From the NCBI GenBank assembly GCA_018240785.1, contig JAFEFC010000026.1:30363-94362 (forward strand): DNA of 64,000 nucleotides. The letters run 5' to 3'. A program made the translations under genes and the position numbers. Source of the DNA: Pseudomonadota bacterium (lineage in GTDB: Bacteria; Pseudomonadota; Gammaproteobacteria; Burkholderiales; Rhodocyclaceae). Of this stretch, positions 97 to 55,872 are shown piece after piece. A model generated the notes under the pieces. That model did no database searches and was not told where the DNA came from. It saw only the letters and a list, made by a program, of their open reading frames with translations. Within the stretch, counting starts at the first letter, position 1; each line of letters begins with the position of its first letter.

Positions 97-114
97 ACGT
101 CCAAAAGGACGATG
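97..114 (-). promoter_or_regulatory. Putative steroid-regulon operator, copy 1
   Basis: On the minus strand it reads CATCGTCCTTTTGGACGT, matching the recurring 18-bp motif of this window. The core CGTCC-N4-GGACG (98-111) is a perfect inverted repeat, the most symmetrical of the eight copies. It lies about 160 bases upstream of the Rieske oxygenase start. That it binds a regulator is inference from recurrence and symmetry. Confidence 0.5.
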
Positions 115-147
115 CCTGCCCCGGCCGCGAACCGACCATCATGTAGC

Positions 148-165
148 CATCGTCCAAACAGGGGA
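148..165 (+). promoter_or_regulatory. Putative steroid-regulon operator, copy 2
   Basis: Reads CATCGTCCAAACAGGGGA on the plus strand. The left half matches the consensus exactly and the right half is degenerate. Its centre is 51 bp from that of copy 1, in the same divergent promoter region between the partial leftward gene and the Rieske oxygenase gene. Confidence 0.42.
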
Positions 166-275
166 TGTGCGCGCCATTTCCGGCCACCAGAATCGGTCAC
201 GTTCGGGCTTTCAGGCCGGCACTTGGCGCCAACCCGATGGATTGCACATTGGATCACTACGAAGAGGAGGCCCGC

Positions 276-1382
276 ATGGCCACTACGAAAGACTATCGCC
301 TTGGTGAATTCACCTTCCCGCGCGGCTGGTTCATGATCGCGGACGCTTCTGAGCTCGACACCCACAAACCCTTGTCGGTGCGCTTCTTCGGTCAGGACTT
401 CGCACTCTACCGCGGCCGCGAAACCGGCAAGGTCGTGCTGCTCGACGCCTACTGTCCGCACATGAAGACGCACCTCGCCGCGCCGAACAACACCTCCTAC
501 GTCGTCATCGACGGCGGCGGCTCCAACGTCGAGGGCGACGGCATCCGCTGCCCCTACCATGGCTGGCGCTTCGGCACCGACGGCAAGTGCAACGACATTC
601 CGTATCACGATGGTCCGATTCCCGCGGCCGCGAAGGTGAAGTCGTGGCCGGTGGTCGAGAGCCTGGGCGCAATCTGGGTGTGGTACGACCCCGAGGGCGG
701 CGAGCCCGAGTGGGACCACCCGACCCTGAAGGAATGGGACGATCCGGCCTGGGTGCACTGGAAGTTCGACCACCTCGGCATGCTCCAGCAGCATCCGCAG
801 GAAGTCATCGACAACATCTGCGACTATGGTCACCTGAGCCCGATCCACGGCTCGACCGTGCAGCGCTACGAGAACGAGTTCAAGGCCCACCACGCCATCC
901 AGCGCCAGTGCGGCCCGCACCGCACCCTGGTCGGCGAGAACGGCGTCAGCCCGATCCTGCACACCATCACGATCTACCACGGTCCCGGCGTGCTCATCTC
1001 GCACCTGACCGGTCTCTACGACGCCGTGCTGATGATCACCCACACCCCGGTCGAGGATGGCTCGCTGAAGGTCTGGCACGCCCTGCTGGTGAAGTCGCCG
1101 AGCAACAGCGCGGTCGCGACGCACACCGACATGATCGCCGCGCGCCAGTTCCAGGAATCCAGCCGCCTCGCCTTCGCGCAGGACTTCGAGGTGTGGACCA
1201 ACAAGGCTCCGTGCCTGAACGGTCTCTTCATCCCCAGCGACGGCCCGTTCATGAAGGCGCGCATCTGGTACAAGCAGTTCTACAACCCGCGCGCGAAGAA
1301 GAACGAGTACCTCGAGCAGTGCGAGGGCTACTACGTCCCGAAGGGCATCCCGCCCTACACCGAGACCCCGGTCGCCGCCTGA
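276..1382 (+). CDS. KshA-like Rieske non-haem iron oxygenase, oxygenase subunit
   Basis: The 368-residue protein is a terminal oxygenase component that would take electrons from a separate reductase. The Rieske [2Fe-2S] ligands are C60-P-H62 and C92-P-Y-H95-G-W. The catalytic mononuclear iron site is N180..D183, H186 and H191 in an N-x2-D-x2-H-x4-H pattern. Overall resemblance, together with the many steroid catabolism genes in the window, suggests 3-ketosteroid 9-alpha-hydroxylase (KshA) or a close steroid hydroxylase. No KshB-like reductase is present here. The gap between the two halves of the Rieske motif is about 29 residues rather than the usual 15-17, so the cluster-binding domain has an insertion. 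I chose the start at 276 because GAGGAGG precedes it; an upstream in-frame start at 165 has no such site. A strong terminator follows. Substrate is inferred. Confidence 0.78.
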   Translation: MATTKDYRLGEFTFPRGWFMIADASELDTHKPLSVRFFGQDFALYRGRETGKVVLLDAYCPHMKTHLAAPNNTSYVVIDGGGSNVEGDGIRCPYHGWRFGTDGKCNDIPYHDGPIPAAAKVKSWPVVESLGAIWVWYDPEGGEPEWDHPTLKEWDDPAWVHWKFDHLGMLQQHPQEVIDNICDYGHLSPIHGSTVQRYENEFKAHHAIQRQCGPHRTLVGENGVSPILHTITIYHGPGVLISHLTGLYDAVLMITHTPVEDGSLKVWHALLVKSPSNSAVATHTDMIAARQFQESSRLAFAQDFEVWTNKAPCLNGLFIPSDGPFMKARIWYKQFYNPRAKKNEYLEQCEGYYVPKGIPPYTETPVAA

Positions 1383-1406
1383 ACACGGCTCACTTATGAA
1401 GCACGC

Positions 1407-1436
1407 ACGGCCTGTCCATCCGACAGGCCGTTTTTT
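1407..1436 (+). terminator. Rho-independent terminator after the Rieske oxygenase gene
   Basis: A 9-bp perfect stem (CGGCCTGTC at 1408-1416 with GACAGGCCG at 1422-1430), a 5-base loop and six T residues directly after it. The outer A1407-T1431 pair extends the stem. It ends the single-gene transcript. Confidence 0.9.
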
Positions 1437-1463
1437 CATCCACTGCGGAAAAGGACGCCAGAC

Positions 1464-1757
1464 ATGGCCATTGCATCGTTCGCACCCTGGGTCGGGCTGA
1501 TCGGCCTCATCGGCCTCGCCGGGCTCGCCGGCATCCGTCACCCGGTCCTTCGCGCGCGCTCCGGAGCGGCCATCCGCATGCTGGGCCTGCTCGGCCTGGC
1601 GGGGCTCGCCGGCATCTGGATCGACGGCGCCGGCGCCATGGGCGCCTTCGGCGCGCTGGGACTGTGGAACCATCAGTCACCGAAGCTCGCGTTCTGGGGG
1701 CGGCTGGGCTGGGCCGGCGTCGCCGGCCTCCCCTTCGCGCTCCGCGCCCTCGTCTGA
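1464..1757 (+). CDS. Small glycine-rich membrane protein, unknown function
   Basis: A 97-residue protein made of hydrophobic, Gly/Leu/Ala-rich stretches with a repeated GLxGLAGLAG segment (about residues 12-22 and 41-50), which suggests three or four short membrane helices. I do not recognise a family. An AAGGA site lies about 10 bases before the ATG. It sits alone between the Rieske gene terminator and a convergent aldehyde dehydrogenase gene. Codon bias fits the neighbours, which supports a real gene, but no function can be proposed. Confidence 0.5.
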   Translation: MAIASFAPWVGLIGLIGLAGLAGIRHPVLRARSGAAIRMLGLLGLAGLAGIWIDGAGAMGAFGALGLWNHQSPKLAFWGRLGWAGVAGLPFALRALV

Positions 1758-1763
1758 AACGGC

Positions 1764-1787
1764 GCGGCCCCGTCTGGACGGGGCCGC
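1764..1787. terminator. Stem-loop between convergent genes
   Basis: GCGGCCCCGT (1764-1773) pairs perfectly with ACGGGGCCGC (1778-1787) around a CTGG loop. It lies between the stop codons of the small membrane protein and the convergent aldehyde dehydrogenase. No T-tract follows on either strand, so it could be a bidirectional but weak terminator. Confidence 0.55.
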
Positions 1788-1793
1788 GATACG

Positions 1794-3245
1794 TCACACC
1801 TTCAGCGTCTTCGACAGGCGCCCGTAGAGCTTCGTCGAATAGGGCGGCAGCAGACCGAGGGCCTTGCGCGGGTCCCACCAGCCGCTGCGATACACCGTGC
1901 GCGGATGGCAGAACTCATTGAAGCCCTCGCGCCCGTGATACGCCCCCATGCCCGAAGCGCCGACGCCACCGAAGGGCGCGTCGTGCGCGGCGACCTGCAG
2001 CATCACGTCGTTGATCGCCACGCCACCGGACAGGGTGCCCTCCAGCACCTGGCGCTCCTCCCTGCGGTCGGCTCCGAAGTAATAGAGCGCGAGCGGACGC
2101 GGAGCGGCGTTGATGCGGTCGATGACGGCGGCGATGTCCGTGTAGCGCTCCACCTGCAGCACGGGGCCGAAGATCTCCTCCTGCGCTATCCGGCTGCCGG
2201 CAGGCGGGTCGACCACCAGATGCAGCGGCAGCTTGCGGCCGGCGGCGAGCAGCCCGCCCCCGCAGTCCACCACACGTCTTCCGGCTGCGCGGATCTCGTC
2301 CAGGTAGCCGCGGATGCGGGCGAAGTGGCGCGCGTCGATGATCGAGGTCAGCCCGGCATCGCCGGCGACCGGTGGAAACATGCGCCGATGAACCGCCTCG
2401 CACGCCGCGATGAAGGGCTCGACAAGCTCGTCCGCGACGAAAACCGTGTCCGGACTGACGCAGACCTGCCCACCGTTCATCACCTTTGCGCTCACGGTGC
2501 GCTCGGCGGCCAACGCCACATCCGCACTTCGACCGACGATCACCGGCGACTTGCCGCCCAGTTCCAGGGTGACGGGCACCAGGTTCTCGGCCGCTGCCCG
2601 CATCACCCGGATGCCGGTCGTCGTGCTGCCGGTAAGCACCAGGTGATCGAAGGGCAAGGCACTGAATGCCCCCGCCACCGCCGCATCGCCGGTGAACACG
2701 GCGACCTCGTCCGCAGCGAACAGGTCCTGCACCGCCGCCTGCAACAAGGCCGACGTCCGCGGCACGAACTCCGACGGCTTCAGCATCGCGCGGTTGCCGG
2801 CAGCGAGCGCGAAGGCCAGCGGCGCCAGGGTGGTGAACAGCGGCACGTTCCACGGCCCCAGGATGCCCACCACCCCCTTGGGCATGCGCTGCACCTCGAC
2901 CCGGGCCCCGAACAGGCTGAACGGGACGACGCCGTCGCGCCGGTCGGGCTTCATCCAGCTTCGGATCCGCCCGCGTGCGTACTTGACCGTGTTGAAGGTC
3001 GCCATGACGTCGCTCATCAGCGAGGTCTCGCGCGGCCGCCCGCCAAAATCGGCGTCGAGCGCGGCGCAGAATTCGTCCGCCCGATCACGGAGCAGAACCA
3101 GCAGCCGCGTCAGGCGATCCCTGCGCAGCGCCACATCCGGCGGGCCGTCACGCGTCTGCGAGGCCTTCATCGCCTCGAGGCAGGCGCGCAGCGTCGCCTC
3201 GTCCGCGCTTTGCAGCCGCGTCATCTCATCGCTGTTCATTCTCAT
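1794..3245 (-). CDS. Coniferyl-aldehyde-dehydrogenase-type aldehyde dehydrogenase
   Basis: A 483-residue NAD(P)-dependent aldehyde dehydrogenase that oxidises an aldehyde to the carboxylic acid. Signatures are the GPWNVPL region near residue 130, the LELGGKSP motif with general base E228, and NGGQVCV with catalytic C262. The overall sequence is closest in character to the coniferyl aldehyde dehydrogenase (CalB) subfamily. It is the last gene of a leftward operon (crotonase, nitroreductase, GMC oxidoreductase, this gene) and begins 31 bases after the GMC stop, so it most likely finishes oxidation of the aldehyde made by the GMC enzyme. I chose the ATG at 3245, 5 bases from a GAGGA site; an ATG two codons downstream is also possible. 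The physiological aldehyde is unknown. Confidence 0.85.
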   Translation of the reverse strand: MRMNSDEMTRLQSADEATLRACLEAMKASQTRDGPPDVALRRDRLTRLLVLLRDRADEFCAALDADFGGRPRETSLMSDVMATFNTVKYARGRIRSWMKPDRRDGVVPFSLFGARVEVQRMPKGVVGILGPWNVPLFTTLAPLAFALAAGNRAMLKPSEFVPRTSALLQAAVQDLFAADEVAVFTGDAAVAGAFSALPFDHLVLTGSTTTGIRVMRAAAENLVPVTLELGGKSPVIVGRSADVALAAERTVSAKVMNGGQVCVSPDTVFVADELVEPFIAACEAVHRRMFPPVAGDAGLTSIIDARHFARIRGYLDEIRAAGRRVVDCGGGLLAAGRKLPLHLVVDPPAGSRIAQEEIFGPVLQVERYTDIAAVIDRINAAPRPLALYYFGADRREERQVLEGTLSGGVAINDVMLQVAAHDAPFGGVGASGMGAYHGREGFNEFCHPRTVYRSGWWDPRKALGLLPPYSTKLYGRLSKTLKV

Positions 3246-3276
3246 CCCATTCCTCGCTTCAGCCGGATGGCCGACG

Positions 3277-4881
3277 TCAGCGCCGCGCTGCACGCGCGAA
3301 CTCGGCCGCGCGCTCGCCGATCGCGATCGCGGTGGCGTTGGTGTTGCCCGAGATCAGCCGCGGCATCACCGAGGCGTCGGCCACGCGCAGGCCGCTCACG
3401 CCGCGGACCGCCAGCGTGGTGTCGACCACGGTGGCGGCGTCATTGCCCATCCGGCAGGTGCCCACCGGATGGTGGCCGGTCGTGCCGGCACGGCGGGCGT
3501 AGTCCATCAGCTCGTCGCGCGTGCCTGCCGCCGCGCCCGGATACACCTCGCCCGCGGTGATCGCCGCAAGCGCGGGGGCAGCAGCGATGCGCCGGGCCCA
3601 TTCCATGCCCGCCAGCGTGACCTCGACGTCATGGTCGGTGCTCAGGTAGTTCATGCGCAGGCGCGGCCGCGCGGCGGGATCGGCCGAGGCGAGGGTGAGC
3701 ACGCCGCGCGAGGTCGGCCGGCAGACGTTGGGCGCCAGCGTGTAGCCCGGAAAGGCATGCAGCTTCTTCTGGTCGCCGTCTAGGTCGCCCGACAGAGGCA
3801 GCACGTGGAACTGAAGGTCCGGGCGCACGACATCCGCGCGGCTGCGCAGGAAGATGCCGACCTCCGCCGCCGGCATGGTCATCGCCCCGCGCTTGCGCAC
3901 GAGGTAGTTCAGCACCTCGAGCAGCACGCGCGCCCCGCCCAGGCGGGGGTTCATCGACGGCTGGCCGTCGCGCAGACGCCACATCAGCGGCACCACCAGA
4001 TGATCCTGCAGGTCCGCCCCCACCGCGGGCGCATCGACACGCACCGGAATGCCATGGCGCGCGAGTTCCGCGCCCGGCCCGATGCCAGACAGCATCAGGA
4101 TCTGCGGCGAGCCGATGGCGCCGGCGCAGAGGATCACCTCGGCGCGCGCCGATGCCACCCGCTCCTGCCCGCCGAGCTTGTAGCGCACCCCGGTTGCGCG
4201 CCCGCCCTCGATCACCACGCCGGCGACCAGTGCCCCCGTGTGCACCACAAGGTTGTGGCGTGCGCGTGCCGGTCGCAGGTAGCCATGCGCCGCCGAGCAG
4301 CGGCGCGCACGGGCGATCGTCGCCTGGTAGGGGCCGACGCCCTCCTGGCGCGCGCCGTTGAAGTCGCGAGTCCGCGGAACACCCGCCTGCTCGGCGGCCT
4401 GGATCATGACCTCGGCCAGCGGCGTCGGGTCGACCAGGTCGGACACCGCGATCGGGCCATCCTGGCCGTGGTGCTCATCGGCGATGCCGAGGTTGCGCTC
4501 CATGCGGCGGAAGTAGGGCGCGAGGTCGGCCCAGCCCCAGCCGGGCGCCCCGGCGGCGACCCAGTCGTCGTAGTCCTCGCGCTGGCCGCGGATGTAGATG
4601 AGGCCGTTGATGGCCGAGCTGCCACCCAGCACCTTGCCGCGCGGCAGGGGCACGCGCCGGCCACGGAGACCGGGCTCGGCCTCGGTTTCGAAGGCCCAGT
4701 TGAAGGGGCTGGCCGGGTCCTGCGTCTTGCCCCAGCCGGCCGGCATCTCGATCAGCAGATTGTCGTCGCGCCCGCCGGCCTCGAGCAGCAGCACGCTGCA
4801 GCCGGGGTCCTCGGAAAGGCGTGCCGCCACCGCGCAGCCGGCACTGCCTGCGCCCACCACGACGTAGTCGAAGCTGTCCAT
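3277..4881 (-). CDS. GMC-family FAD alcohol oxidoreductase
   Basis: A 534-residue glucose-methanol-choline family flavoprotein. The N-terminal FAD-binding GAGSAG (residues 10-15), the GMC signature GKVLGGSSAINGLIYIRG near residue 100, and a C-terminal HHPVGTCRMG with the active-site histidine are all clear. In the last motif (SGNTNATAIAIG) the second active-site position is Asn, as in choline-dehydrogenase-like members. Such enzymes oxidise primary alcohols to aldehydes. Its start lies 1 base after the nitroreductase stop and the aldehyde dehydrogenase follows, so the pair would carry out alcohol to aldehyde to acid. The substrate cannot be read from the sequence; a co-regulated sulfatase nearby suggests an alcohol released from a sulfate ester (inference). 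Confidence 0.88.
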   Translation of the reverse strand: MDSFDYVVVGAGSAGCAVAARLSEDPGCSVLLLEAGGRDDNLLIEMPAGWGKTQDPASPFNWAFETEAEPGLRGRRVPLPRGKVLGGSSAINGLIYIRGQREDYDDWVAAGAPGWGWADLAPYFRRMERNLGIADEHHGQDGPIAVSDLVDPTPLAEVMIQAAEQAGVPRTRDFNGARQEGVGPYQATIARARRCSAAHGYLRPARARHNLVVHTGALVAGVVIEGGRATGVRYKLGGQERVASARAEVILCAGAIGSPQILMLSGIGPGAELARHGIPVRVDAPAVGADLQDHLVVPLMWRLRDGQPSMNPRLGGARVLLEVLNYLVRKRGAMTMPAAEVGIFLRSRADVVRPDLQFHVLPLSGDLDGDQKKLHAFPGYTLAPNVCRPTSRGVLTLASADPAARPRLRMNYLSTDHDVEVTLAGMEWARRIAAAPALAAITAGEVYPGAAAGTRDELMDYARRAGTTGHHPVGTCRMGNDAATVVDTTLAVRGVSGLRVADASVMPRLISGNTNATAIAIGERAAEFARAARR

Positions 4882-4882
4882 C

Positions 4883-5581: not shown

Positions 5582-5646
5582 CCGGATTGATGCCGAAGGA
5601 TCGGCCTGATTCACCACCGCAGGGCCGCGCTCGGCGACCTGCCGCG

Positions 5647-6438: not shown

Positions 6439-6490
6439 GGGATGCAGCTCCTATCGCATCCGGCGCACACGCTGTCGCCGGGACGCCTCA

Positions 6491-6527
6491 AGTATAAGGA
6501 GCACCACCCGTCATCCTGATTCGCATT
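6491..6527 (-). promoter_or_regulatory. Promoter of the crotonase-to-ALDH operon with shared 9-mer
   Basis: Read on the minus strand, AATGCGAAT (6527-6519) is followed by exactly 22 bases and then a -10-like TATACT (6496-6491), about 53 bases before the crotonase ATG. The same 9-mer, spacing and -10 box occur before the sulfatase-maturase gene on the other side of the TetR gene. The 9-mer covers roughly the -45 to -36 zone, a usual place for an operator or activator site. No good -35 box is seen. Confidence 0.6.
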
Positions 6528-6606
6528 GAACGGATCCGAACATCGATCGCAAGCAACTGAATAAGCGAGGAAAAAAAACGTAGGCGCGATTCGGCGGGCG
6601 TGCGCG

Positions 6607-7314: not shown

Positions 7315-7405
7315 ATGCAATACGAAGACGGTTCCGGACCCAGCCATTCGAAAGCCTGAAGTCCCTTTTTAAACAGCCATTTAACGATGGCCAGCGAAGA
7401 TGGGG

Positions 7406-7442: not shown

Positions 7443-7516
7443 CGGTTCCACCTGACGCCGCGTCCCGTATCGGCGGGTCGGACGGCAGGGGCACTGTAAC
7501 AAGGATGGAGGGAGAT

Positions 7517-24003: not shown

Positions 24004-24822
24004 TCAGGCGTGCTGCGAGCTGACGGAGAGCACTTCGCCCGTCATGTAGGAGGCGTAATCGCTGGCAAGGAAGACCATCACGTTGGCCACTTCCCAGACT
24101 TCGGCGGCACGGCCGAAGGCTTCGCGGCTGGCGAGCTGGGCGAGCAGCTCCTCGCTCGAGGCCTTCTTCAGGAACTCGTGCAGCGCAATCGACGGCGACA
24201 CCGCGTTGATGCGCACGCCATGCTCGGCCGCTTCCACCGCCGAACAGCGCGTCAGCGCCATCACCCCGGCCTTGGCCGCGGCGTAGTGGGCCTGACCCTT
24301 CTGCGCGCGCCAGCCGAGCACCGAGGCGTTGTTGACGATGGCGCCGCGGCCGCGCTTCTCCATGTGCGGCAGCATCGCGCGCGTCATGCGGAAGGTGCCG
24401 GTGAGAGTGATGTCGAGCACCCGGCTCCACTCGTCGTCGGTCATCTCGGTGACGCGCTTCTCGCCACCGAGGCCGGCGTTGTTGATCAGCACGTCGACGC
24501 CGCCGAGCTTGTCCTCGGCCGCGGCGACCAGCGCCTGCACTTCTTCTTCATTGGTCACGTTGCAGAGCTGACCCCAGACGTTCTGCAGCCCGGTGTCGGC
24601 CTTCAGCTTCGCCACCGCCTCTTCGAGGCGGCGCGGATGGATGTCGGAAATCATCAGCGCGCGGCAGCCCTCCTCCGCGCACTTGTGCGCGGCGGCAAAG
24701 CCGATGCCGGCGCCGGCCGCTGCGGTGATCAGGACGGACTTGCCAGCGAGCAACTGGTGACCGGGGACATAGGCGGGAGCTTCTTTCACGGCGTGAACCT
24801 CGAAGGGTGGATACGCCGTCAT
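24004..24822 (-). CDS. ipdF: IpdF-like short-chain dehydrogenase/reductase
   Basis: A 272-residue SDR. The cofactor motif is unusual (TAAAGAGIG around residue 33), followed by NNAGLGG and catalytic Y-x3-K in HYAAAKAG, and it ends in SVSSQHA. This glycine motif, the SVLGWRAQKGQAHYAAAK block and the C terminus are features I associate with IpdF, which oxidises a hydroxylated C/D-ring intermediate (HIP-CoA pathway) in steroid degradation. It is the first gene of the leftward operon, and the recurring 18-bp motif lies 26 bases before its ATG. The resemblance is from memory rather than an alignment. Confidence 0.76.
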   Translation of the reverse strand: MTAYPPFEVHAVKEAPAYVPGHQLLAGKSVLITAAAGAGIGFAAAHKCAEEGCRALMISDIHPRRLEEAVAKLKADTGLQNVWGQLCNVTNEEEVQALVAAAEDKLGGVDVLINNAGLGGEKRVTEMTDDEWSRVLDITLTGTFRMTRAMLPHMEKRGRGAIVNNASVLGWRAQKGQAHYAAAKAGVMALTRCSAVEAAEHGVRINAVSPSIALHEFLKKASSEELLAQLASREAFGRAAEVWEVANVMVFLASDYASYMTGEVLSVSSQHA

Positions 24823-24847
24823 TTATAGGGGGGTCGCCGCCGGGCGG

Positions 24848-24865
24848 CATCGTCAAAACGGACGG
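24848..24865 (+). promoter_or_regulatory. Putative steroid-regulon operator, copy 3
   Basis: Reads CATCGTCAAAACGGACGG on the plus strand, 26 bases upstream of the leftward IpdF-like gene. The ATCGTC half and the GGAC half are kept; position 8 is A instead of C. Its closeness to the start codon suggests repression if it binds a regulator. Confidence 0.45.
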
Positions 24866-43766: not shown

Positions 43767-43780
43767 GCCGCTCGCGCTCC

Positions 43781-44682: not shown

Positions 44683-45585
44683 TCAGGCGGCCTGTTCCTG
44701 CTGACCCACGCCGAAGTCGTGGCCCCAGATGCTGACGCGGGTGAATTCGAAGGGCGAATGGCGCTCCCAGTCGAGCTGCAGGCCGCCATAGCCGTATTCG
44801 AGGTCGAAGCCCGAAGGCGTCTTCATGTAGAAGGAGATCATGCGGTCGTTGAGGTGCTGACCCAGGGTGGCCGACAGCGGCACCTTGTGCGCGATGCGAC
44901 GGTCATGGGCGCGGCCGACCTCGGTCATCGAATCGACCTCGACCATCACGTGCACGCAGCCGCTCGGCACCGGGTACTCGGCGATCGCCAGGCTGTGGTG
45001 GCGGGCGTTGTTGCAGTGCAGGAAGTGGATGCGCACCGGCGGCGCCGACGGGTCGGGACGGAAGTTGAAGATGTCCGACAGGCCGAACCCGAGCACATCG
45101 CGGAAGAAGGCCGCGGTGGCGTCGAAGTTGGGCGCCGGCATCACGGTGTGGCCCAGACCCATGTCGCCGGTGAGGAAGCGCGGCACGCCCTGCGGCGACA
45201 CGAAGGGCTGGCAGTCCGACAGGTGGCCCCAGCACAGCTCGTGGCGGTTGCCCGAGGGGTCGCTCACCAGGGCGACGGCCTGCATGCCGCGCTGGGCGAC
45301 GGTGGCGGCATCGGCAAGCTCGTAGCCCACGCCCTTGGCATCGAGCTCGGCGAGCGCGGCCTTGAAGGCGCCCTCACCCGCAAGCTCCCAGCCCGAAGAC
45401 AGGTAGCGACGCTCGGCGCCCTGCACCACCAGGATGCGGAAGGGGCGCTCGTCCATCTTGATGTACAGGCCGCCACCAGGCGCGGTCGAGGTCATCATGC
45501 CGAGCACGTTCTCGGCGTAATGCTTCCATTCGGCGAGGTCGTCGATCTGGGCGACGAAGTAGGCCAAACCGCGGATGTCGATCAT
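44683..45585 (-). CDS. hsaC: HsaC/TesB-like extradiol ring-cleavage dioxygenase
   Basis: A 300-residue two-domain type I extradiol dioxygenase, the size of HsaC. Iron ligands are H146 (LGHTVMPAP), one of H196/H197 (ARHHSLAIAE) and E263 (FDLEYGYGG). It would cleave the catecholic ring A of 3,4-dihydroxy-9,10-secosteroid (DHSA). It is the first gene of a 14-gene leftward operon; the recurring 18-bp motif lies about 62-79 bases upstream. I chose the ATG at 45585 (MIDIRGLAYF); an upstream in-frame start adds four residues. The hydrolase that acts next is encoded at 57346. Confidence 0.87.
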   Translation of the reverse strand: MIDIRGLAYFVAQIDDLAEWKHYAENVLGMMTSTAPGGGLYIKMDERPFRILVVQGAERRYLSSGWELAGEGAFKAALAELDAKGVGYELADAATVAQRGMQAVALVSDPSGNRHELCWGHLSDCQPFVSPQGVPRFLTGDMGLGHTVMPAPNFDATAAFFRDVLGFGLSDIFNFRPDPSAPPVRIHFLHCNNARHHSLAIAEYPVPSGCVHVMVEVDSMTEVGRAHDRRIAHKVPLSATLGQHLNDRMISFYMKTPSGFDLEYGYGGLQLDWERHSPFEFTRVSIWGHDFGVGQQEQAA

Positions 45586-45646
45586 TGCTGCCCCCAAAGA
45601 TTGGTCGGATACGTGGGGGCATTGTGCGAACAGGCGGCCGAGCCAT

Positions 45647-45664
45647 CATCGTCCGTTGAGACTA
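45647..45664 (+). promoter_or_regulatory. Putative steroid-regulon operator, copy 4
   Basis: Reads CATCGTCCGTTGAGACTA on the plus strand: perfect outer halves with a varied centre. It lies in the promoter region of the hsaC-to-SnoaL operon, which starts 62 bases to the left. Confidence 0.5.
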
Positions 45665-49599: not shown

Positions 49600-49675
49600 G
49601 CTCCCTTACCTCGCTGTTCCGGGCCCTGTCCGGCCCCGTGTTGGGCGCAACGATGCCACAGGCGCGCCGGCCGAC

Positions 49676-49693
49676 AATCGTTCAAATCGACTA
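49676..49693 (+). promoter_or_regulatory. Putative steroid-regulon operator, copy 5
   Basis: Reads AATCGTTCAAATCGACTA on the plus strand, differing from the best consensus at several central positions but keeping ATCGT and GACTA at the same spacing. It lies between the leftward Ltp2-like gene and the rightward PQQ dehydrogenase gene, which starts 24 bases to its right, and could serve either. Confidence 0.42.
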
Positions 49694-49716
49694 GGCAGGG
49701 CGGAGGAGACCTCCGG

Positions 49717-51906
49717 ATGGACGATTCGTCGGCGCAGCAACCGACCGACCATGCACCACCGATCAACACTTCAGGCGGACGGCGCACGTCCGCACGGGAT
49801 CCCGCCATGCGTCCATTCATGCTCGGACCACTGCTCGTCACGATGGCCATTGCCGGCGCTCTTGCCGGCCATTGGGCCACTGGCCACGCCGCCCCTGCCG
49901 CACCCGTCACCGGTACCAGCTCGACCGAATGGCGCCGGCACGGATACGACGCGGCAGAAACACGCTTCAGCCCCCTGTCCGCCATCAATACCGGCAACGT
50001 CGCGCACCTGGGCCCGGCCTGGCATTTCCGCTTCGACCGCCCGCGCGGCGTCGAGGCCACCCCCATCATGGTCGACGGCACCCTTTACGTCAGCGGCCCA
50101 TGGGGGGTGGTGTATGCGCTCGACGCCCGCAATGGCCGACCGAAGTGGAAGCATGACCCTCAGGTACCGGCGGGCAAGGGCATCCACGCCTGTTGCGACG
50201 TGGTCAATCGCGGCGTGGCGGTGGACAATGGCCGCGTCTTCGTCGCCACCATCGACGGCCGCCTGCAGGCACTCGACAGCCGCAGCGGACGCCTGCTGTG
50301 GTCGACGCGCAGCTTCGATCCCGCCAGGCCCTACACCATCACCGGCGCGCCACGGGTGGTGCGCGACCTGGTCGTGATCGGCAATGCGGGCGCCGAGTAT
50401 GGCGTGCGCGGCTTCGTGTCGGCGTACGACGCGGCTACCGGCGACCTGCGCTGGCGCTTCTACACCGTGCCCGGCAATCCCGCCGACGGCCCGGACAGCG
50501 CGGTTTCCGATCGTCCACTGCGCGATCTCGCGCTGCCGACCTGGCGCGGCGAGTGGTGGCGCTACGGCGGTGGCGGCACCGTGTGGGACGCGATGGCCTG
50601 GGACCCCGATCTCGACCTGCTGTATTTCGGCGTCGGCAACGGCTCACCGCACGATCGGGACGTGCGCAGCCCCGGCGGTGGCGACAACCTGTTCCTGTCG
50701 TCGATCGTCGCGGTACGGCCTGCCACCGGCGAATACGTCTGGCACTACCAGACGACGCCCGGCGACAGTTGGGACTACACCGCGACCCAGCACATGATCC
50801 TCACCGACCTGGAGATCGGCGGACGATCGCGCAAGGTGCTGATGCAGGCGCCGAAGAACGGCTTCTTCTATGTGCTGGACCGCGCCACCGGCGAACTGCT
50901 TTCGGCCGACAAGTACGTGCCGGTCAACTGGGCGAGCCATGTCGACCTTGCCAGCGGCCGCCCGGTCGAGAACGAAGGGGCCCGCTACCCGACCGGCAAG
51001 CCCTTCCTCGTGCAGCCTTCGCAGCTCGGTGGGCACAACTGGCAGCCGATGGCCTGGAGCCCCCTCACCGGCCTGGTCTACATTCCAGCCCAGGAAAACA
51101 CGGGCTTCATGATGAAGGAGCCGGGTTTCCGCTTCGAGCGCGATCGCTGGAACACCGGCGTGCTGAATCCGCCGATGCCGCCCGATCCGGCGGTGCTGAA
51201 GCAGGCCCGGGATTCGATGCGCGGCCACCTGCTGGCCTGGGACCCGGTGCGGCGCACCGCGGTGTGGCGCACCCCGCACGCCAGTTCGTGGAACGGCGGC
51301 GTGCTGGCGACGGCCGGCAACCTGGTGTTCCAGGGGGTGGGCGGCGGCGGGCTGGCAGCCTTCGATGCGCGCGACGGACGCCGCCTGTGGCAGTCCGACA
51401 CCTGGCTGGACATCGTCGGCGGACCGATCAGCTACGAACTCGACGGCCAACAGTACATCGCCGCCGCAGCCGGCTTCGGCAGTTCGATCCATCTCACGTC
51501 GAGCGCGCTGCTGCCGCGCACCGGAGCGCCCGTGCCGGGCGGGCTGTTCGTGTGGAAGCTGGGGGGCAAGGCGGCGATGCCGCACGCCAGCGAACGGCCG
51601 ACGCTGCCACCTCCGCCCGACCACGGCAGCGACGCCGACGTGGGCCGCGGCGCCATGCTCTACGCTCGCTACTGCATGCAATGCCACGGCGCGGGTGCGA
51701 TGGCCGGCGGCGGCATGCCGGATCTGCGCCATTCGCCCTACCTGGCCGATGCGGCCCTGTTCAGCCGCCCGCTGCTCGAAGGCATCCTCGCCGCGCGCGG
51801 CATGCCCGACTTCCGCGACACGTTGCGGCCGGAAGACACCGAGGCGATCCGCGCGTACGTGGTTCGCATGGCGCACGTCATGAGCGGGGAAGCCGGCACC
51901 CGCTGA
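49717..51906 (+). CDS. Quinohaemoprotein alcohol dehydrogenase (PQQ plus cytochrome c)
   Basis: A 729-residue periplasmic dehydrogenase. After a long N-terminal region with a signal helix (about 36-58), an eight-bladed PQQ propeller follows, with the vicinal disulfide C159-C160 and repeated tryptophan-docking segments. A C-terminal cytochrome c domain binds haem at C653-M-Q-C-H657. These type I/II-like quinohaemoproteins oxidise alcohols and pass electrons to the respiratory chain. The ATG at 49717 has GGAGGAG upstream; an internal ATG at 49807 would give a more standard signal peptide. In a steroid cluster it may oxidise a side-chain or nuclear alcohol; the substrate is not known. Confidence 0.86.
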   Translation: MDDSSAQQPTDHAPPINTSGGRRTSARDPAMRPFMLGPLLVTMAIAGALAGHWATGHAAPAAPVTGTSSTEWRRHGYDAAETRFSPLSAINTGNVAHLGPAWHFRFDRPRGVEATPIMVDGTLYVSGPWGVVYALDARNGRPKWKHDPQVPAGKGIHACCDVVNRGVAVDNGRVFVATIDGRLQALDSRSGRLLWSTRSFDPARPYTITGAPRVVRDLVVIGNAGAEYGVRGFVSAYDAATGDLRWRFYTVPGNPADGPDSAVSDRPLRDLALPTWRGEWWRYGGGGTVWDAMAWDPDLDLLYFGVGNGSPHDRDVRSPGGGDNLFLSSIVAVRPATGEYVWHYQTTPGDSWDYTATQHMILTDLEIGGRSRKVLMQAPKNGFFYVLDRATGELLSADKYVPVNWASHVDLASGRPVENEGARYPTGKPFLVQPSQLGGHNWQPMAWSPLTGLVYIPAQENTGFMMKEPGFRFERDRWNTGVLNPPMPPDPAVLKQARDSMRGHLLAWDPVRRTAVWRTPHASSWNGGVLATAGNLVFQGVGGGGLAAFDARDGRRLWQSDTWLDIVGGPISYELDGQQYIAAAAGFGSSIHLTSSALLPRTGAPVPGGLFVWKLGGKAAMPHASERPTLPPPPDHGSDADVGRGAMLYARYCMQCHGAGAMAGGGMPDLRHSPYLADAALFSRPLLEGILAARGMPDFRDTLRPEDTEAIRAYVVRMAHVMSGEAGTR

Positions 51907-51918
51907 GGCAGGTTGCTC

Positions 51919-51968
51919 CCGGGCGCCGCTTCCAGGCGCCCGGCATTGCGGCGCCGGACGGCGCCGCA
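51919..51968. terminator. Two GC-rich hairpins between convergent genes
   Basis: CCGGGCGCC (51919-51927) pairs with GGCGCCCGG (51935-51943), and TGCGGCGCC (51947-51955) with GGCGCCGCA (51960-51968). They lie between the PQQ dehydrogenase stop and the end of the convergent small gene. Neither has a T-tract; they are candidate bidirectional terminators. Confidence 0.5.
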
Positions 51969-51975
51969 GCAGAAA

Positions 51976-52173
51976 TCAGTTGGCCGCCAGCATGGCCAGG
52001 AAGCGATCGGTACTGGCGCGCGGCTGCATCCCCGCGCAGCCTGAACCGCCCGTGCCGCAGGAGGGAAGCTGAACCGTTTCGTCGCTCGATCCAGCAGCAC
52101 TGCGATCGAACAGGGAAGTCAGCGCCGAGACGCAGCCAACCACCAGGCTGCAGACCAGAATCTTGGTGAACAT
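51976..52173 (-). CDS. Small secreted Cys-containing peptide, unknown
   Basis: A 65-residue protein with an N-terminal signal (MFTKILVCSLVVGCVSALTSL). Cys in VVGC could be a weak lipobox. A short mature part contains a C-GTGGSG-C motif (around residues 39-46). A strong AAGGAAGGAGAGAGG site precedes the ATG, which argues for real expression. A copy of the 18-bp motif lies about 145 bases upstream. No family is recognised; the two close cysteines could bind metal or form a disulfide. Confidence 0.55.
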   Translation of the reverse strand: MFTKILVCSLVVGCVSALTSLFDRSAAGSSDETVQLPSCGTGGSGCAGMQPRASTDRFLAMLAAN

Positions 52174-52317
52174 TCCTCTCTCCTTCCTTTCCCGGATATC
52201 AGGTGCGCAGATGCACCAACGAGGCAGGAACCCGGTTCAGCGCCGCTTCGCCTGCGGCTGCCACCCAAGTGTCTCCTCCTGCATGGTCGGCAGATTGTCG
52301 CGACCGGACCAGCGGCG

Positions 52318-52335
52318 CATCGTCCAATCAGACTA
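52318..52335 (+). promoter_or_regulatory. Putative steroid-regulon operator, copy 6 (consensus copy)
   Basis: Reads CATCGTCCAATCAGACTA on the plus strand, the sequence used here as consensus. It lies between the terminator of the fadD operon and the small secreted peptide gene, in the orientation seen for the other leftward operons. Confidence 0.5.
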
Positions 52336-52340
52336 GGCGC

Positions 52341-52366
52341 AAAAAAAAGGGAGCCGAACGGCTCCC
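52341..52366 (-). terminator. Rho-independent terminator of the SDR-SnoaL-fadD operon
   Basis: On the minus strand a 7-bp stem GGGAGCC/GGCTCCC (52366-52349, loop GTTC) is followed by eight T residues (52348-52341). It lies 23 bases after the acyl-CoA synthetase stop. Confidence 0.92.
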
Positions 52367-52388
52367 CGCACTACTTTCCGCGCTCCGG

Positions 52389-54239
52389 TCAGCCGGCGAA
52401 AGGCGGCAGTCCCGCGTTCTTCAGTGCTTCATCCGAATACGGCTGGTAGGTTCCGGCCTTGTCGTCGCGCACATAGAGCGGATCGTCGAAGGCCCTGGGG
52501 TCGTAGCCGTGGCGCTGCAGGTCCACCTTGCGCAGCTTGAAGGTGGCCGTCAGGTCCGCGGCCTGCGACACGCGCACGAACTGCGGCGCGGCGTAGCGCG
52601 GAATGCGGGCCTCGGTCAGATCGTAGAAAGCCTTCGGATCGAAGGTGTAGCCGGGCTGCATGACGATGGCCGCCATGCCGGCGCGGCCCTCGTGCTCGGG
52701 CACCTTCACGCCGTAGATGTTGATCAGCTCCAGCCCCGGGAAGTCGGACAGGGCGTCGGCGACCTCGGCCGTCGACACGTTCTCGCTCTTCCAGCGGAAA
52801 GTGTCGCCAATGCGATCGACGAAGTAGAAGTAACCGTCCTCGTCATAGCGCAGCAGATCGCCCGAGCTCCAGTAGGCGTCGCCCTCGACGAACACGTTGC
52901 GCAGGATCTTCTTCTCGGTGGCTTCCGCCGACGTATAGCCTTCGAAGCGCCCGGCGCCGATCTCGGGGTGGTCGACGATGTAGCCGATGCCCTCGCCCAC
53001 TTCGCCCGGCTTGCACAGGATGTAGCGGCCGTTCTCGTCGCGCGGGTGCGACTCGGTCTCGACGTCGTAGCGCACCAGGCGGAAGTTGGTCTTGTCCCAG
53101 TCCGGCACGCGTCCGCAGGAACCCACGTAATTGTCGACGTTGATCAGCGCGGTGTTCGCTTCGGTCGACCCCCAGCCTTCGAAGACCTGGATCGGCCCGA
53201 AGCGCTCGATCCAGCGCACCCAGCTCTCGGGCGTCAGGCCCGCGCCAAGCATGCAGCGCAGGCTATGTTCGCGGTCGTTCGGCTGCGGCGGAGCGTTCAG
53301 CAGATAGCGACAGATCTCGCCGATGTACTGGAAAATCGTGATGCGGTGCCGGCGGACGTCGTTCCAGAACTCTCGTGTGCTGAACCTGCGCCGCACGACG
53401 ATGCTGCCGCCCGCCTTCAGCGCCGTCGACGTCACCGACGTCGCCGCAGCGCCGTGGTACAGCGGCAGGCAGCAGTAGAAGACGTCTTCCGGCGTGACGT
53501 CGAGCGTCACTTCCATCACATCGCCGGACGACATCCAGCGCATGTGGCTGTAGCGCGCCGCCTTGGGCAGGCCAGTGGTGCCCGAGGTGAAGATCAGCAG
53601 CATCGACGAATCGGCGCGCACCGCCGCGCGCCCGTCGCGCGCAAATGCGGCGCGCGATGCCGCCGCGACCTCCTCGCTGATGTCCGCCGCGGCGATCTCG
53701 CGCAGCGCGGCCGCAGCCGGCTTCTCGGCATCGCTGACGACATACAGCGGCTGCTCCGGCCGGCCGGTGGTCACGGCGAAATTCTCCAGGCATTCCTCGC
53801 CGACGATTGCCGCACGCGCCTGGGTGCTTTCCAGCGCATGCACCAGCGGGCGGCCGGTCACCTGGGTATTGATGACGGCGGTGACGACGCCCAGCTTGGC
53901 CAGCCCGAACCAGTAGAAGAAGAACTCGGGGCGGTTCTCCATCGCCAGCGCGCAGACGTCGCCGCAACGCAGGCCACGAGCCTGGAGGGCGTGAGCAACC
54001 TGGTTGGCACGCGCGTCGACTTCGGCGTAGCTGTAGCGTCGATCGCCATAGACGACGAAGTCGCGATCGCCGAATCGACGGGCCTGTTCCTCCAGCCGGT
54101 CGGCGACGGTGTACAGATCACCCGGCCTGGTCAGATTGGCCGCGCGCGAGCGCAGGTCGAGCTTGGCATGGGTGGCCTCGCGCGACACGATCTTGCCGCG
54201 CGCGGAAACGGGGTCCATAAGGACGGCGGAATCGGACAT
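52389..54239 (-). CDS. FATP-type long-chain/steroid acyl-CoA synthetase
   Basis: A 616-residue adenylate-forming enzyme of the very-long-chain/FATP (FadD6-like) group that activates a carboxylic acid with ATP and CoA. The AMP-binding motif FTSGTTGLPKA is at 217-227; FEGWGSTEAN and YWSSGDLLRYDEDGYFYFVDRIGDTFRWKSENVST are the later conserved blocks. It is the last gene of an operon with an SDR and a SnoaL protein, under a copy of the 18-bp motif, which points to activation of a steroid side-chain or bile-acid carboxylate. GGAGA precedes the ATG; an in-frame ATG seven codons on is possible. Confidence 0.85.
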   Translation of the reverse strand: MSDSAVLMDPVSARGKIVSREATHAKLDLRSRAANLTRPGDLYTVADRLEEQARRFGDRDFVVYGDRRYSYAEVDARANQVAHALQARGLRCGDVCALAMENRPEFFFYWFGLAKLGVVTAVINTQVTGRPLVHALESTQARAAIVGEECLENFAVTTGRPEQPLYVVSDAEKPAAAALREIAAADISEEVAAASRAAFARDGRAAVRADSSMLLIFTSGTTGLPKAARYSHMRWMSSGDVMEVTLDVTPEDVFYCCLPLYHGAAATSVTSTALKAGGSIVVRRRFSTREFWNDVRRHRITIFQYIGEICRYLLNAPPQPNDREHSLRCMLGAGLTPESWVRWIERFGPIQVFEGWGSTEANTALINVDNYVGSCGRVPDWDKTNFRLVRYDVETESHPRDENGRYILCKPGEVGEGIGYIVDHPEIGAGRFEGYTSAEATEKKILRNVFVEGDAYWSSGDLLRYDEDGYFYFVDRIGDTFRWKSENVSTAEVADALSDFPGLELINIYGVKVPEHEGRAGMAAIVMQPGYTFDPKAFYDLTEARIPRYAAPQFVRVSQAADLTATFKLRKVDLQRHGYDPRAFDDPLYVRDDKAGTYQPYSDEALKNAGLPPFAG

Positions 54240-54296
54240 GCGTCCATCTCCAATGATTTTCGTGAAGTCTCTCGGAAGGCCGTGGTGGCGCGGGCT

Positions 54297-54938
54297 TCAG
54301 CGCACGCGGATCTTCGGCTCGGGCGCGCCGCGCCGCATCGTTGCCAGGAATTTCTCCATCGGCGCCGGCGCGGCGACCTCGGGCAGATGCTCCTTGCCGG
54401 GCCGTTCCGCCCAGAACGCCTTCCACGACGGGAAGAGCTCGTGGAAGGTGCCTTCGTACGGCTCGCGCCCCGGCCAGCGCATCTTGCGATCGCCGATCGG
54501 CGGCTTGTTCAGGTCGGTGGCATACCAGTAGCACGGCAGGCGGCGGCGGAAACACCACTGCCCATCTATTCTCTCGTAATCGTCCCAATACAACATCTGC
54601 ATGATCACCCATTCCGGGCCGGTCTCATGCTCGTTCTTGGAATACACCACGCCGCTGGCGTGATCGGGGTCGGAGAACTCGATGATGTGCTGGCCGACGT
54701 GGTGGGACGTGCCCGAGAACTGGTTGCGCAGCGTGTCGTCCACCCAGGCCTTCAGGTGGGCGCGGCCCACCTTCTCGCGCCCGACGCGGATGTCCGGCGC
54801 GAACAGGTTCACATGGGCGTCGAGGTCGCGCATGTCGAGCGACAGCGAATACTTGGCGACCAACTGGCGGATGGCATCGAGCGACTCGAGCCGATCGATG
54901 CGCGCCAGCAGCTCGGCCGGAACGGTGGCGGTGGTCAT
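54297..54938 (-). CDS. SnoaL/NTF2-fold protein with BaiE-like catalytic residues
   Basis: A 213-residue SnoaL-like protein with a C-terminal extension. Y30 and D35 (KYSLSLDMRD) and H79/H80 (TSHHVGQHI) match the Tyr30, Asp35 and His83 of BaiE bile-acid dehydratase in position; the fourth acidic residue is Asn. It could eliminate water from a hydroxysteroid-CoA or isomerise a keto-steroid. It sits between the SDR (11 bases) and the acyl-CoA synthetase (57 bases). The proposed activity is inferred from these residues and the neighbours. Confidence 0.74.
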   Translation of the reverse strand: MTTATVPAELLARIDRLESLDAIRQLVAKYSLSLDMRDLDAHVNLFAPDIRVGREKVGRAHLKAWVDDTLRNQFSGTSHHVGQHIIEFSDPDHASGVVYSKNEHETGPEWVIMQMLYWDDYERIDGQWCFRRRLPCYWYATDLNKPPIGDRKMRWPGREPYEGTFHELFPSWKAFWAERPGKEHLPEVAAPAPMEKFLATMRRGAPEPKIRVR

Positions 54939-54949
54939 GCCGGCGCCGC

Positions 54950-55684
54950 TCAGATGAAGGCCATGCCGCCGTTGACGGCGATGTTCTGGCCGGTGATGAA
55001 GCTGGCGTCGTCGCTGGCGAGGAAGGCAGCGACGCGGGCGATTTCCTCCGGTTCGCACATGCGTCCCAGCGGAATGGCCTTGATCATCGACTGCATCCAC
55101 TCGTCGGGGATGCCCGCCATCATCGGCGTGTTGGTCGGCCCCGGCACGATGGTGTTCACGCGGATGCCGCTGGCGGCCAGCTCGCGCGCGATGCTGCGCG
55201 TCAGGCCCATCACGCCCGCCTTGGACGCGCAATAGTGGCTCGGCCCTTCGCCGGACATCGCCGCCGTGCTCGACACGTTGATGATCGCGCCTTTCGTGCC
55301 GCTCTTCTGCATCAGGCGGGCGCCTTCACGACAGCACAGGAAGGTGCCGGTGAGATTCACGCCGACCACGCGCGTCCAGTTGTCGTCAGGCGTATCGAGA
55401 AAGGCATCGACCGAACCGATGCCGGCACTGTTGACGACGACATCGACGCGACCGAAGCGCTCGCCGACGGCGTCGAAGGCGGCCCTGACCGAAGCCGGCT
55501 CGGCAACGTTGCAGCTCAGCGCGAGGCCGCGCTCGCCCAGTGCGGCGACCGCCTCACCGGCGGCTGCGGCGTTGATGTCCGCGGCCACGACTTTCGCGCC
55601 CAGCGCGCCGAAATGGGCCACGATCGCACGCCCCATGCCCTGGGCCGCACCCGTCACGAATACCACCTTGCCTTCAAAGCTCAT
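54950..55684 (-). CDS. Short-chain dehydrogenase/reductase (hydroxysteroid-dehydrogenase-like)
   Basis: A 244-residue classical SDR with TGAAQGMGRAI (11-21), an Asp (AADI) after strand 2 suggesting NAD preference, NSAGIGS in place of NNAG, SSTAAMSGEG and HYCASKAG (Y-x3-K). Size and motifs suit a hydroxysteroid dehydrogenase. It is first in the operon SDR-SnoaL-FadD, and copy 7 of the 18-bp motif lies about 100 bases upstream. The position of the oxidised hydroxyl group is unknown. Confidence 0.84.
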   Translation of the reverse strand: MSFEGKVVFVTGAAQGMGRAIVAHFGALGAKVVAADINAAAAGEAVAALGERGLALSCNVAEPASVRAAFDAVGERFGRVDVVVNSAGIGSVDAFLDTPDDNWTRVVGVNLTGTFLCCREGARLMQKSGTKGAIINVSSTAAMSGEGPSHYCASKAGVMGLTRSIARELAASGIRVNTIVPGPTNTPMMAGIPDEWMQSMIKAIPLGRMCEPEEIARVAAFLASDDASFITGQNIAVNGGMAFI

Positions 55685-55782
55685 CTGCCGTCTCCGTCAT
55701 CGTGTTTATGGCAACACTCCCGCACCGGGGGACCGGCGAGGGACGCGATGGAGCGCAGTTTTCTCGCGATGACGCAGGTCGG

Positions 55783-55800
55783 CATCGTCCAATGGGACTA
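55783..55800 (+). promoter_or_regulatory. Putative steroid-regulon operator, copy 7
   Basis: Reads CATCGTCCAATGGGACTA on the plus strand; GTCC-N4-GGAC is a perfect inverted repeat. It lies upstream of the leftward SDR operon, with its centre 72 bp from that of copy 8 in the same divergent region. Confidence 0.52.
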
Positions 55801-55854
55801 AGGGCGCGGCGCGCAGCCGCACTGCGGCGGCCATGACGGCTCGCTGCGGCCCAT

Positions 55855-55872
55855 TCGTCTGAATGGACGATG
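55855..55872 (-). promoter_or_regulatory. Putative steroid-regulon operator, copy 8
   Basis: On the minus strand it reads CATCGTCCATTCAGACGA. It lies about 88 bases upstream of the rightward MFS transporter start, in the mirror orientation to copy 7, so each divergent operon has one copy pointing towards it. Confidence 0.5.

What the first reader, a model, noticed from the sequence alone, without database searches (positions are those of the whole stretch)
97..55872. An 18-bp motif recurs before every putative steroid operon
Eight intergenic copies of a motif close to CATCGTCCAATCAGACTA were found: 97-114(-), 148-165(+), 24848-24865(+), 45647-45664(+), 49676-49693(+), 52318-52335(+), 55783-55800(+) and 55855-55872(-). 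The core GTCC-N4-GGAC is an inverted repeat, perfect in copies 1 and 7. Copies 1, 3, 4, 7 and 8 lie before the Rieske oxygenase, the IpdF operon, the hsaC operon, the SDR-fadD operon and the MFS-hsaD operon. Copies 2, 5 and 6 fall before the left-edge gene, the Ltp2/PQQ region and a small secreted peptide. I saw none before the Bat, NsrR/oxidase, hip or sulfatase operons. This suggests an undescribed steroid regulon operator whose regulator is not obvious in the window.
Basis: partly seen in the sequence, partly recalled or inferred. Interest (0 to 1): 0.86.

Follow-up and report, generated by a model that had tools for sequence, protein, structure and literature searches.

The report
Shared switch sequence for steroid-eating genes
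Bacteria that eat steroids carry the same short DNA switch at a fixed distance in front of many of their steroid-breakdown genes, and a regulator protein found in the same genomes very probably turns these genes on by binding it.

Summary
The motif is real and marks a steroid regulon. A matrix trained only on other species ranks copies 4-8 far above chance; copies 1-3 are weak and copy 2 is doubtful. The window belongs to a Thauera-like genome. Its ten copies of CATCGTC-N6-GACTA all lie on two contigs that hold steroid genes. The box stands about 57-78 bp before hsaC in 80 of 80 named loci, from Thauera to Pseudomonas and Vibrio, and before relatives of other steroid genes. It is directional: a sigma70-type -10 element most often follows exactly 20 nt downstream (62 of 87 non-hsaC sites). 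This puts its centre near -42.5, where LuxR-type class II activators bind. The missing regulator is probably a 379-aa LuxR-type protein on the same contig, 26 kb left of the window. Relatives of it occur in 48 of 48 box-carrying genomes searched, and three paralog genes carry the box at their own promoter. Best reading: a TeiR/TesR-like LuxR activator that switches on steroid catabolism in many Proteobacteria. Binding is untested. I found no description of the box in the papers searched.

The parts
97..114 (-). Box copy 1, upstream of the KshA-type Rieske oxygenase (weak match, 11.8 bits)
134..139 (+). -10-like GACCAT for the KshA promoter, 19 nt after the box (one base off the usual 20)
   Evidence: sequence
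276..1382 (+). KshA-type 3-ketosteroid 9alpha-hydroxylase oxygenase (Rieske + KshA_C)
   Evidence: Pfam
148..165 (+). Box copy 2, facing the MBL-fold gene at the left edge; weak (12.2 bits), no -10 at the expected place; doubtful
   Evidence: MBL fold
24848..24865 (+).
24822..24827 (-). -10-like TATAAA exactly 20 nt after box 3 (does not fit NANNNT at its last base)
24004..24789 (-). SDR family oxidoreductase (NF005880, over its cut-off), first gene of the operon behind box 3
45647..45664 (+). Box copy 4, upstream of hsaC; same place in 80 of 80 named loci
45621..45626 (-). -10 element CACAAT, 20 nt after box 4; 41 of 44 deduplicated hsaC promoters fit NANNNT here
44683..45585 (-). HsaC-type extradiol dioxygenase, first gene of a long leftward run of genes
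   Evidence: NCBIfam NF045631 269.7 bits (below its 450-bit cut-off); gene order
49676..49693 (+).
49650..49655 (-). -10-like CATCGT, 20 nt after box 5
52318..52335 (+). Box copy 6, the strongest in the window (32.1 bits), upstream of a 65-aa ORF
52292..52297 (-). -10-like CAATCT, 20 nt after box 6
51976..52173 (-). 65-aa ORF with a hydrophobic N-terminus; a short ORF (57-70 aa) follows the equivalent box in the 10 loci inspected, similar in sequence in 5
55783..55800 (+). Box copy 7, upstream of the leftward SDR operon; box before 30 of 30 relatives
55757..55762 (-). -10-like AAAACT, 20 nt after box 7
54950..55684 (-). SDR gene behind box 7
   Evidence: Pfam
55855..55872 (-). Box copy 8, upstream of the rightward MFS transporter gene; box before 6 of 6 relatives
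55893..55898 (+). -10-like GACGAT, 20 nt after box 8
55960..57303 (+). MFS transporter behind box 8
   Evidence: Pfam

Best explanation
The motif is the binding site ('steroid box', TNGTC-N6-GACGATG in gene orientation) of a transcriptional activator of steroid catabolism. It lies 20 nt upstream of a sigma70-type -10 element, with nothing conserved in between, so its centre is at about -42.5 and it covers the -35 region: the class II activator position. The activator is most likely the LuxR-type protein encoded at C18:2965-4104 of this genome (379 aa, C-terminal GerE helix-turn-helix, possibly a GAF/PAS-like sensor part), a relative in kind of TeiR/TesR of Comamonas testosteroni. In the presence of a steroid or a steroid metabolite its dimer would bind the inverted repeat, contact RNA polymerase and switch on hsa, ksh, kstD, ring-degradation and transport operons. 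It would also raise its own level, because it is the last gene of a gene run whose promoter carries a box. Shown: the sites, their geometry and orientation, their conservation, and the co-occurrence with the regulator. Inferred: binding, the transcription start, activation rather than repression, and the ligand.
For: (1) Confinement: 10 of 10 own-genome matches to CATCGTC-N6-GACTA are on C18 or C55. A 46-nt model trained only on other genomes puts all ten own-genome hits with E<0.05 there; three congeneric genomes without a regulator hit have best E of 0.22, 0.118 and 0.0073. (2) Conservation: box before hsaC in 80 of 80 named loci; before relatives (>=50% identity) of the genes of copy 3 (21 of 28), copy 5 (22 of 25), copy 7 (30 of 30) and copy 8 (6 of 6). 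(3) Geometry: NANNNT exactly 20 nt after the box in 11 of 22 own sites (next best offset 4), 62 of 87 deduplicated non-hsaC sites (next best 18, at offset 21) and 41 of 44 deduplicated hsaC sites; background about 2.5% per offset. Columns between box and -10 carry at most 0.33 bits. (4) Regulator: of 13 GerE matches in the genome, 12 over the family cut-off, one lies among the boxes on C18; another is on C55 but 82 kb from the nearest box known there. Hits over 600 bits occur in 6 of 199 family genomes, which have 5-13 box matches; >=5 matches in 10 of 14 genomes with a hit of >=180 bits versus 0 of 185 others. In 399 genomes of the order the four with the regulator (E<=1e-60) are exactly the four with hsaC, and all four have a box before hsaC, one of them weak (15 bits). 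48 of 48 searched genomes behind the named box loci have it. (5) Regulator-first test: of 87 plasmid records with a homolog I fetched six; the five with 37-54% identity all have boxes, 12 in all, 9 with the -10 at offset 20; the sixth, with 30%, has none. Loci of 11 other LuxR proteins of this genome have none. (6) Three paralog genes have a box with -10 at offset 20 before themselves: in G139, G289, G475.
Against: No binding, expression or start-site data. Co-occurrence of regulator and box could reflect that both travel with the steroid gene package. Within 10 kb of hsaC the regulator is present in only 9 of the 80 loci. Genomes G022 and G129 carry 9 and 6 regulator hits but 1 and 2 box matches. 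hsaC relatives of 39-56% identity have no box (5 of 5). The own second paralog (C14, 40%) has no box nearby, and G114 has a box before its paralog but no -10 at 20 nt. Boxes are rare before relatives of the SDR heading the regulator's gene run (3 of 30) and of KstD (2 of 5). Copies 1-3 of the window are weak. G103, without the regulator, has one partial model hit at E 0.0073. Homology with TeiR/TesR was not tested by sequence, and TeiR has been described as a kinase that signals through phosphorylation (PMC8399759, PMC6678751, passages read). On re-checking, the comparison with TetR/AraC genes proved weaker than I first took it, so I lowered this confidence slightly.
Confidence: 0.78

Rival explanations
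1. The box is bound by another, unidentified activator of the steroid gene package; the LuxR-type protein merely co-occurs or acts upstream of it, for example by signalling.
For: Regulator and hsaC co-occur so tightly that any steroid-linked regulator would show the same pattern; TeiR was described as a kinase (PMC8399759, PMC6678751, passages read). I did not search all regulators of these genomes.
Against: Paralogs of the LuxR protein carry the box at their own promoters. Five genomes with the regulator and 5 box matches have no hsaC hit at E<=1e-60 (G044, G027, G087, G114, G131; two more, G132 and G162, have 4, which genomes without the regulator can also have). Three TetR and one AraC gene of these contigs have no relative in the 80 hsaC loci, against 9 of 80 for the LuxR protein.
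Confidence: 0.12
2. The box is the operator of a TetR-type repressor, as KstR and KstR2 are in actinobacteria.
For: It is an inverted repeat; three TetR genes lie on these contigs.
Against: The fixed 20-nt distance to the -10, the fixed orientation and the box in place of a -35 are activator features. None of the three TetR proteins has a relative in the 80 hsaC loci or the 14 regulator loci. A review states that KstR homologs are absent from bile-acid-degrading Proteobacteria (PMC8399759, passage read).
Confidence: 0.05
3. Box plus -10 form the promoter of an alternative sigma factor.
For: Fixed spacing and orientation; the gene-proximal half GGACGATG is well conserved; a sigma-factor gene of ECF type lies on C55.
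Against: The outer half is a real inverted repeat of the inner one (T1-A16 and G3-C14 complementary in 65 of 65, C5-G12 in 60 of 65). Second boxes occur 56-80 bp upstream of a first one. The -10 looks like a sigma70 element.
Confidence: 0.03
4. Chance or coding bias in a GC-rich genome.
For: Relaxed patterns with three mismatches hit many places; copies 1-3 alone are near the noise.
Against: The conservation and geometry results listed for the best explanation.
Confidence: 0.01

Closest known systems
TeiR/TesR of Comamonas testosteroni (LuxR-type positive regulator of testosterone degradation)
   Same: LuxR-type, encoded in the steroid cluster, positive regulator of steroid genes including the tesB-tesR cluster (as cited in PMC6895838, PMC6678751 and PMC13101464, passages read)
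   Different: I found no operator described for TeiR/TesR; its sequence was not compared here; it is reported to be a membrane-associated kinase
lux box / LuxR-type class II activation (recalled)
   Same: about 18-20 bp inverted repeat centred near -42.5, overlapping the -35 region, bound by a GerE-domain protein
   Different: different sequence (TNGTC-N6-GACGATG); possibly a PAS/GAF-like sensor part instead of an AHL-binding domain
KstR / KstR2 regulons of actinobacteria
   Same: a dedicated regulator for dispersed steroid operons
   Different: TetR repressors; none of the three TetR candidates tested goes with this box
EdcR operator of Caenibius tardaugens
   Same: palindromic site before steroid (estrogen) operons (PMC8700777, passages read)
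   Different: its sequence TnnCnnTACnAnTnGTAnnGnnA is unrelated and it overlaps the -10, as a repressor site does

Membership tests
LuxR (GerE)-type regulators | C-terminal GerE HTH above the curated cut-off | tested here: met
   28.2 bits against cut-off 23.5, residues 314-367 of 379
TeiR/TesR family | sequence orthology to C. testosteroni TeiR/TesR | not testable with these tools
   no TeiR/TesR sequence was on hand; only architecture, cluster position and role match
TeiR/TesR family | gene lies with the ring-degradation genes and is needed for their induction | tested here: inconclusive
   location met: last gene of an SDR/FMN-oxidoreductase/MaoC/Etf/Etf run on the steroid contig; requirement for induction not tested
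Class II activator site | site centred near -41.5/-42.5 at a fixed distance from a -10, covering the -35 region | tested here: met
   NANNNT exactly 20 nt after the box: 11/22 own, 62/87 and 41/44 in other species; start sites not mapped, so -42.5 is inferred
Class II activator site | loss of the site abolishes expression | not testable with these tools
   needs a reporter assay
TetR-type repressor operator (KstR-like) | a conserved TetR gene accompanies the sites | tested here: inconclusive
   0 of 94 loci for three TetR candidates; a genome-wide TetR search was not done
Regulon operator (comparative-genomics criterion) | sites conserved before related genes in several genera | tested here: met
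   hsaC 80/80; four other window genes

The most novel reading that the evidence does not exclude
One regulator-and-box grammar (inverted repeat, 20 nt, -10, box in place of the -35) governs steroid catabolism across beta- and gammaproteobacteria, and on one Sphingobium plasmid site also alphaproteobacteria. It has moved with the gene package, including onto plasmids and into genomes without an hsaC hit. Its strongest target in this window is not a catabolic enzyme but a small peptide of unknown function, with a similar arrangement in related genera.
Probability: 0.6. Interest if true: 0.72.

Novelty: new member of a known kind. Interest (0 to 1): 0.63.

Why it matters
[quoted passage not shown] testosteroni (PMC6895838, passage read). 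A defined operator with a candidate regulator in 48 of 48 searched genomes makes the question directly testable. It lets steroid regulons be read from sequence, flags unknown genes as probably steroid-induced, and offers promoter parts for steroid biosensors and bioremediation strains.

Tried and rejected
Three TetR genes and one AraC gene on C18 and C55 were considered and set aside: none has a relative in the 94 loci searched. That comparison is limited, since 14 of the 94 loci had been fetched for the LuxR gene; among the 80 others the LuxR protein is found in 9 and the four candidates in 0. NCBIfam gave no equivalog over its cut-off for the regulator. The profile of nine regulators matched no solved structure by sequence at E<=0.01. 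The AlphaFold model from nine sequences is only fair (mean pLDDT 69, pTM 0.51); Foldseek hits to PAS/GAF proteins and to PAS- or AHL-type LuxR regulators have low whole-chain TM-scores, so the sensor fold stays a guess. The idea that GGACGATG is a ribosome-binding site plus start codon was dropped: only at copy 8 does a listed ORF of 100 aa or more begin there, and the -10 lies downstream of it. Loose patterns (914 + 938 hits with up to 2 mismatches) were too unspecific. Literature: ten searches found no description of this box; for most papers I saw only the listing, for eight the matching passages. The library lacks most subscription papers, and the original TeiR paper was not held.
Full report
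Observation. All eight 18-mers are at the stated coordinates and strands. Read in the direction of the gene each one is assigned to, they give TNGTC-N6-GACGATG; the motif strand is opposite to that gene. With a matrix trained only on other genomes, copies 4-8 score 21-32 bits and nothing in 60 simulated windows reaches 20; copies 1-3 score about 12 and are not convincing by sequence alone.

Genome. The window is C18:30363-94362 of a 4.71-Mb assembly. The nearest named hsaC relatives are Thauera (97% to Thauera sp. 28). CATCGTC-N6-GACTA occurs ten times, all on C18 or C55 (reversed control pattern 1 and 0). With CATCGTCC-N5-GAC-N-A, 12 of 17 exact matches are on these two contigs, which make up 4.9% of the assembly. 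Outside the window boxes precede an HsaA-type monooxygenase, a DUF1329 protein, a gene run ending in the LuxR-type regulator, a KstD-type protein, an HsaB-type reductase and others. Inside it they precede a KshA-type oxygenase, an SDR, an HsaC-type dioxygenase, a thiolase-fold protein, a 65-aa ORF, a second SDR and an MFS transporter. The HsaA-, HsaB-, HsaC- and KstD-type proteins score below NCBIfam's equivalog cut-offs, so these names are by type. The HsaA box lies 5 bp from my predicted start, but the HsaA profile begins at residue 56, so the true start is probably further downstream.

Conservation. Eighty named hsaC loci (67-97% identity; Thauera, Zoogloea, Aromatoleum, Pseudomonas, Halopseudomonas, Marinobacterium, Marinobacter, Vibrio and others; the best 80 of 129 relatives found) were scanned. 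All 80 have the box about 57-78 bp before hsaC, although the sequence between diverges. Boxes also precede relatives (at least 50% identity, orthology not tested) of other target genes: 21 of 28, 22 of 25, 30 of 30 and 6 of 6 for copies 3, 5, 7 and 8; 4 of 6 for HsaA; 6 of 8 for DUF1329; 1 of 1 for HsaB; but only 3 of 30 for the SDR that heads the regulator's gene run and 2 of 5 for KstD. hsaC relatives of 39-56% identity (5 of 5) have no box within the fetched 1.0-1.5 kb flanks.

Geometry. Counting NANNNT at every offset downstream of the box gives a main peak at exactly 20 nt: 11 of 22 own sites, next best offset 4; 62 of 87 non-hsaC sites in other species after removing near-duplicates, next best 18 at offset 21, background 2.5% per offset; 41 of 44 hsaC promoters, next best 18 at offset 23. 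In two tandem pairs on C55 only the gene-proximal box has the -10; in the third the distal one has a possible -10 at offset 19. In the 65-site alignment T1-A16 and G3-C14 are always complementary, T4-A13 in 58 and C5-G12 in 60 of 65, while A2-G15 is asymmetric; the columns between box and -10 carry at most 0.33 bits. If the -10 hexamer spans -12 to -7, the centre of symmetry is at -42.5 (arithmetic from these offsets), the class II position used by LuxR-type activators (recalled).

Regulator. The own genome has 13 GerE matches, 12 over the family cut-off. One of these, C18:2965-4104, lies among the boxes of C18, 26 kb left of the window; another is on C55, about 82 kb from the last box found there. 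In 199 family genomes the six with >600-bit hits have 5-13 box matches; >=5 matches occur in 10 of 14 genomes with hits of 180 bits or more and in 0 of 185 others (Fisher p = 5e-14, not corrected for relatedness). In 399 genomes of the order the four with the regulator (E<=1e-60) are exactly the four with hsaC, and all four have a box before hsaC, the one in G437 weak. Of 50 named box loci sent, 48 genomes were held and 48 of 48 have the regulator (best E 2.4e-129 or lower, 55-99% identity); 30 of the 80 loci were not sent. It is within 10 kb of hsaC in only 9 of the 80 loci. Starting from the regulator instead, I fetched six of 87 plasmid records with a homolog. The five with 37-54% identity (Vibrio alfacsensis, Burkholderia arboris, Cupriavidus necator, Caballeronia, Sphingobium) all contain boxes: 12 in total, 9 with the -10 at offset 20. 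The Sphingobium one is upstream of a gene annotated as KshA. The sixth, a Mesorhizobium region around a 30% homolog, has none, nor do 34.8 kb around 11 other LuxR genes of this genome. Three paralog genes, in G139, G289 and G475, carry a box with the -10 at offset 20 before themselves.

Against. G022 and G129 have 9 and 6 regulator hits but 1 and 2 box matches, so distant paralogs may use other sites. The own C14 paralog has no box nearby; G114 has a box before its paralog but no -10 at 20 nt. G103, a congener without the regulator, has one partial model hit at E 0.0073. The tight link of regulator and hsaC is also what simple co-inheritance would give. Paralog self-boxes and genomes with regulator and 5 box matches but no hsaC hit argue for a direct role but do not prove binding. 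That four TetR/AraC candidates have no relative in the 94 loci helps only a little, since 14 of those loci were fetched for the LuxR gene.

Known. TeiR/TesR of C. testosteroni is a LuxR-type positive regulator of steroid genes, and P. stutzeri Chol1 has two TeiR-like genes; deleting one strongly delays cholate degradation (unpublished data cited in review PMC8399759, passage read). A LuxR-family gene of Caenibius tardaugens is upregulated on progesterone and likened to TesR (PMC12239570, passage read). I found no description of this box in ten full-text searches of the open-licence library or in the passages read of eight papers.

Verdict. A real, widely conserved operator of steroid catabolism with a strong regulator candidate: a new, well-supported member of a known kind of system (LuxR-type activator and box), with binding still to be shown.

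Noticed in passing
window 51976-52173 (-), box at 52318: The strongest box of the window precedes a 65-aa ORF with a hydrophobic N-terminus. A short ORF of 57-70 aa follows the equivalent box in the 10 Thauera-, Zoogloea- and Aromatoleum-type loci inspected; tblastn sees clear similarity (E<1e-5) in 5 of them. Function unknown.
   Followed up: partly
window 49843-51906 (+): A PQQ-dependent dehydrogenase with a cytochrome domain lies between boxes 5 and 6; in L090 the two equivalent boxes are only 492 bp apart, so the gene looks inserted here.
   Followed up: partly
C55 33892/33972, 48916/48976, 52151/52207: Tandem boxes 56-80 bp apart; in two of the three pairs only the gene-proximal one has the -10 at 20 nt, in the third the distal one has a possible -10 at 19 nt.
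   Followed up: partly
C14:159907-161022 of the own genome (L255): A second LuxR-type paralog (40% identity) without a nearby box.
   Followed up: partly
G022 and G129: Two genomes of one genus with 9 and 6 hits to the LuxR-type regulator but 1 and 2 box matches: a possible paralog expansion with other targets.
   Followed up: no
L264 (Vibrio alfacsensis plasmid, NZ_CP140104.1): A plasmid region with an HsaA-type relative (75%), a gene order Etf beta - FAD-binding protein - LuxR-type regulator like that of C18, and three boxes.
   Followed up: partly
L051:12013-14481: An MMPL-type transporter with a sterol-sensing-domain match, after a BNR-repeat gene preceded by a weaker box at C18:10912.
   Followed up: no
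G960, G979, G985 (genomes behind L101, L131 and L142): Two or three LuxR-type regulator genes stand side by side (for example G960:C81:3682, 5006 and 6299).
   Followed up: no
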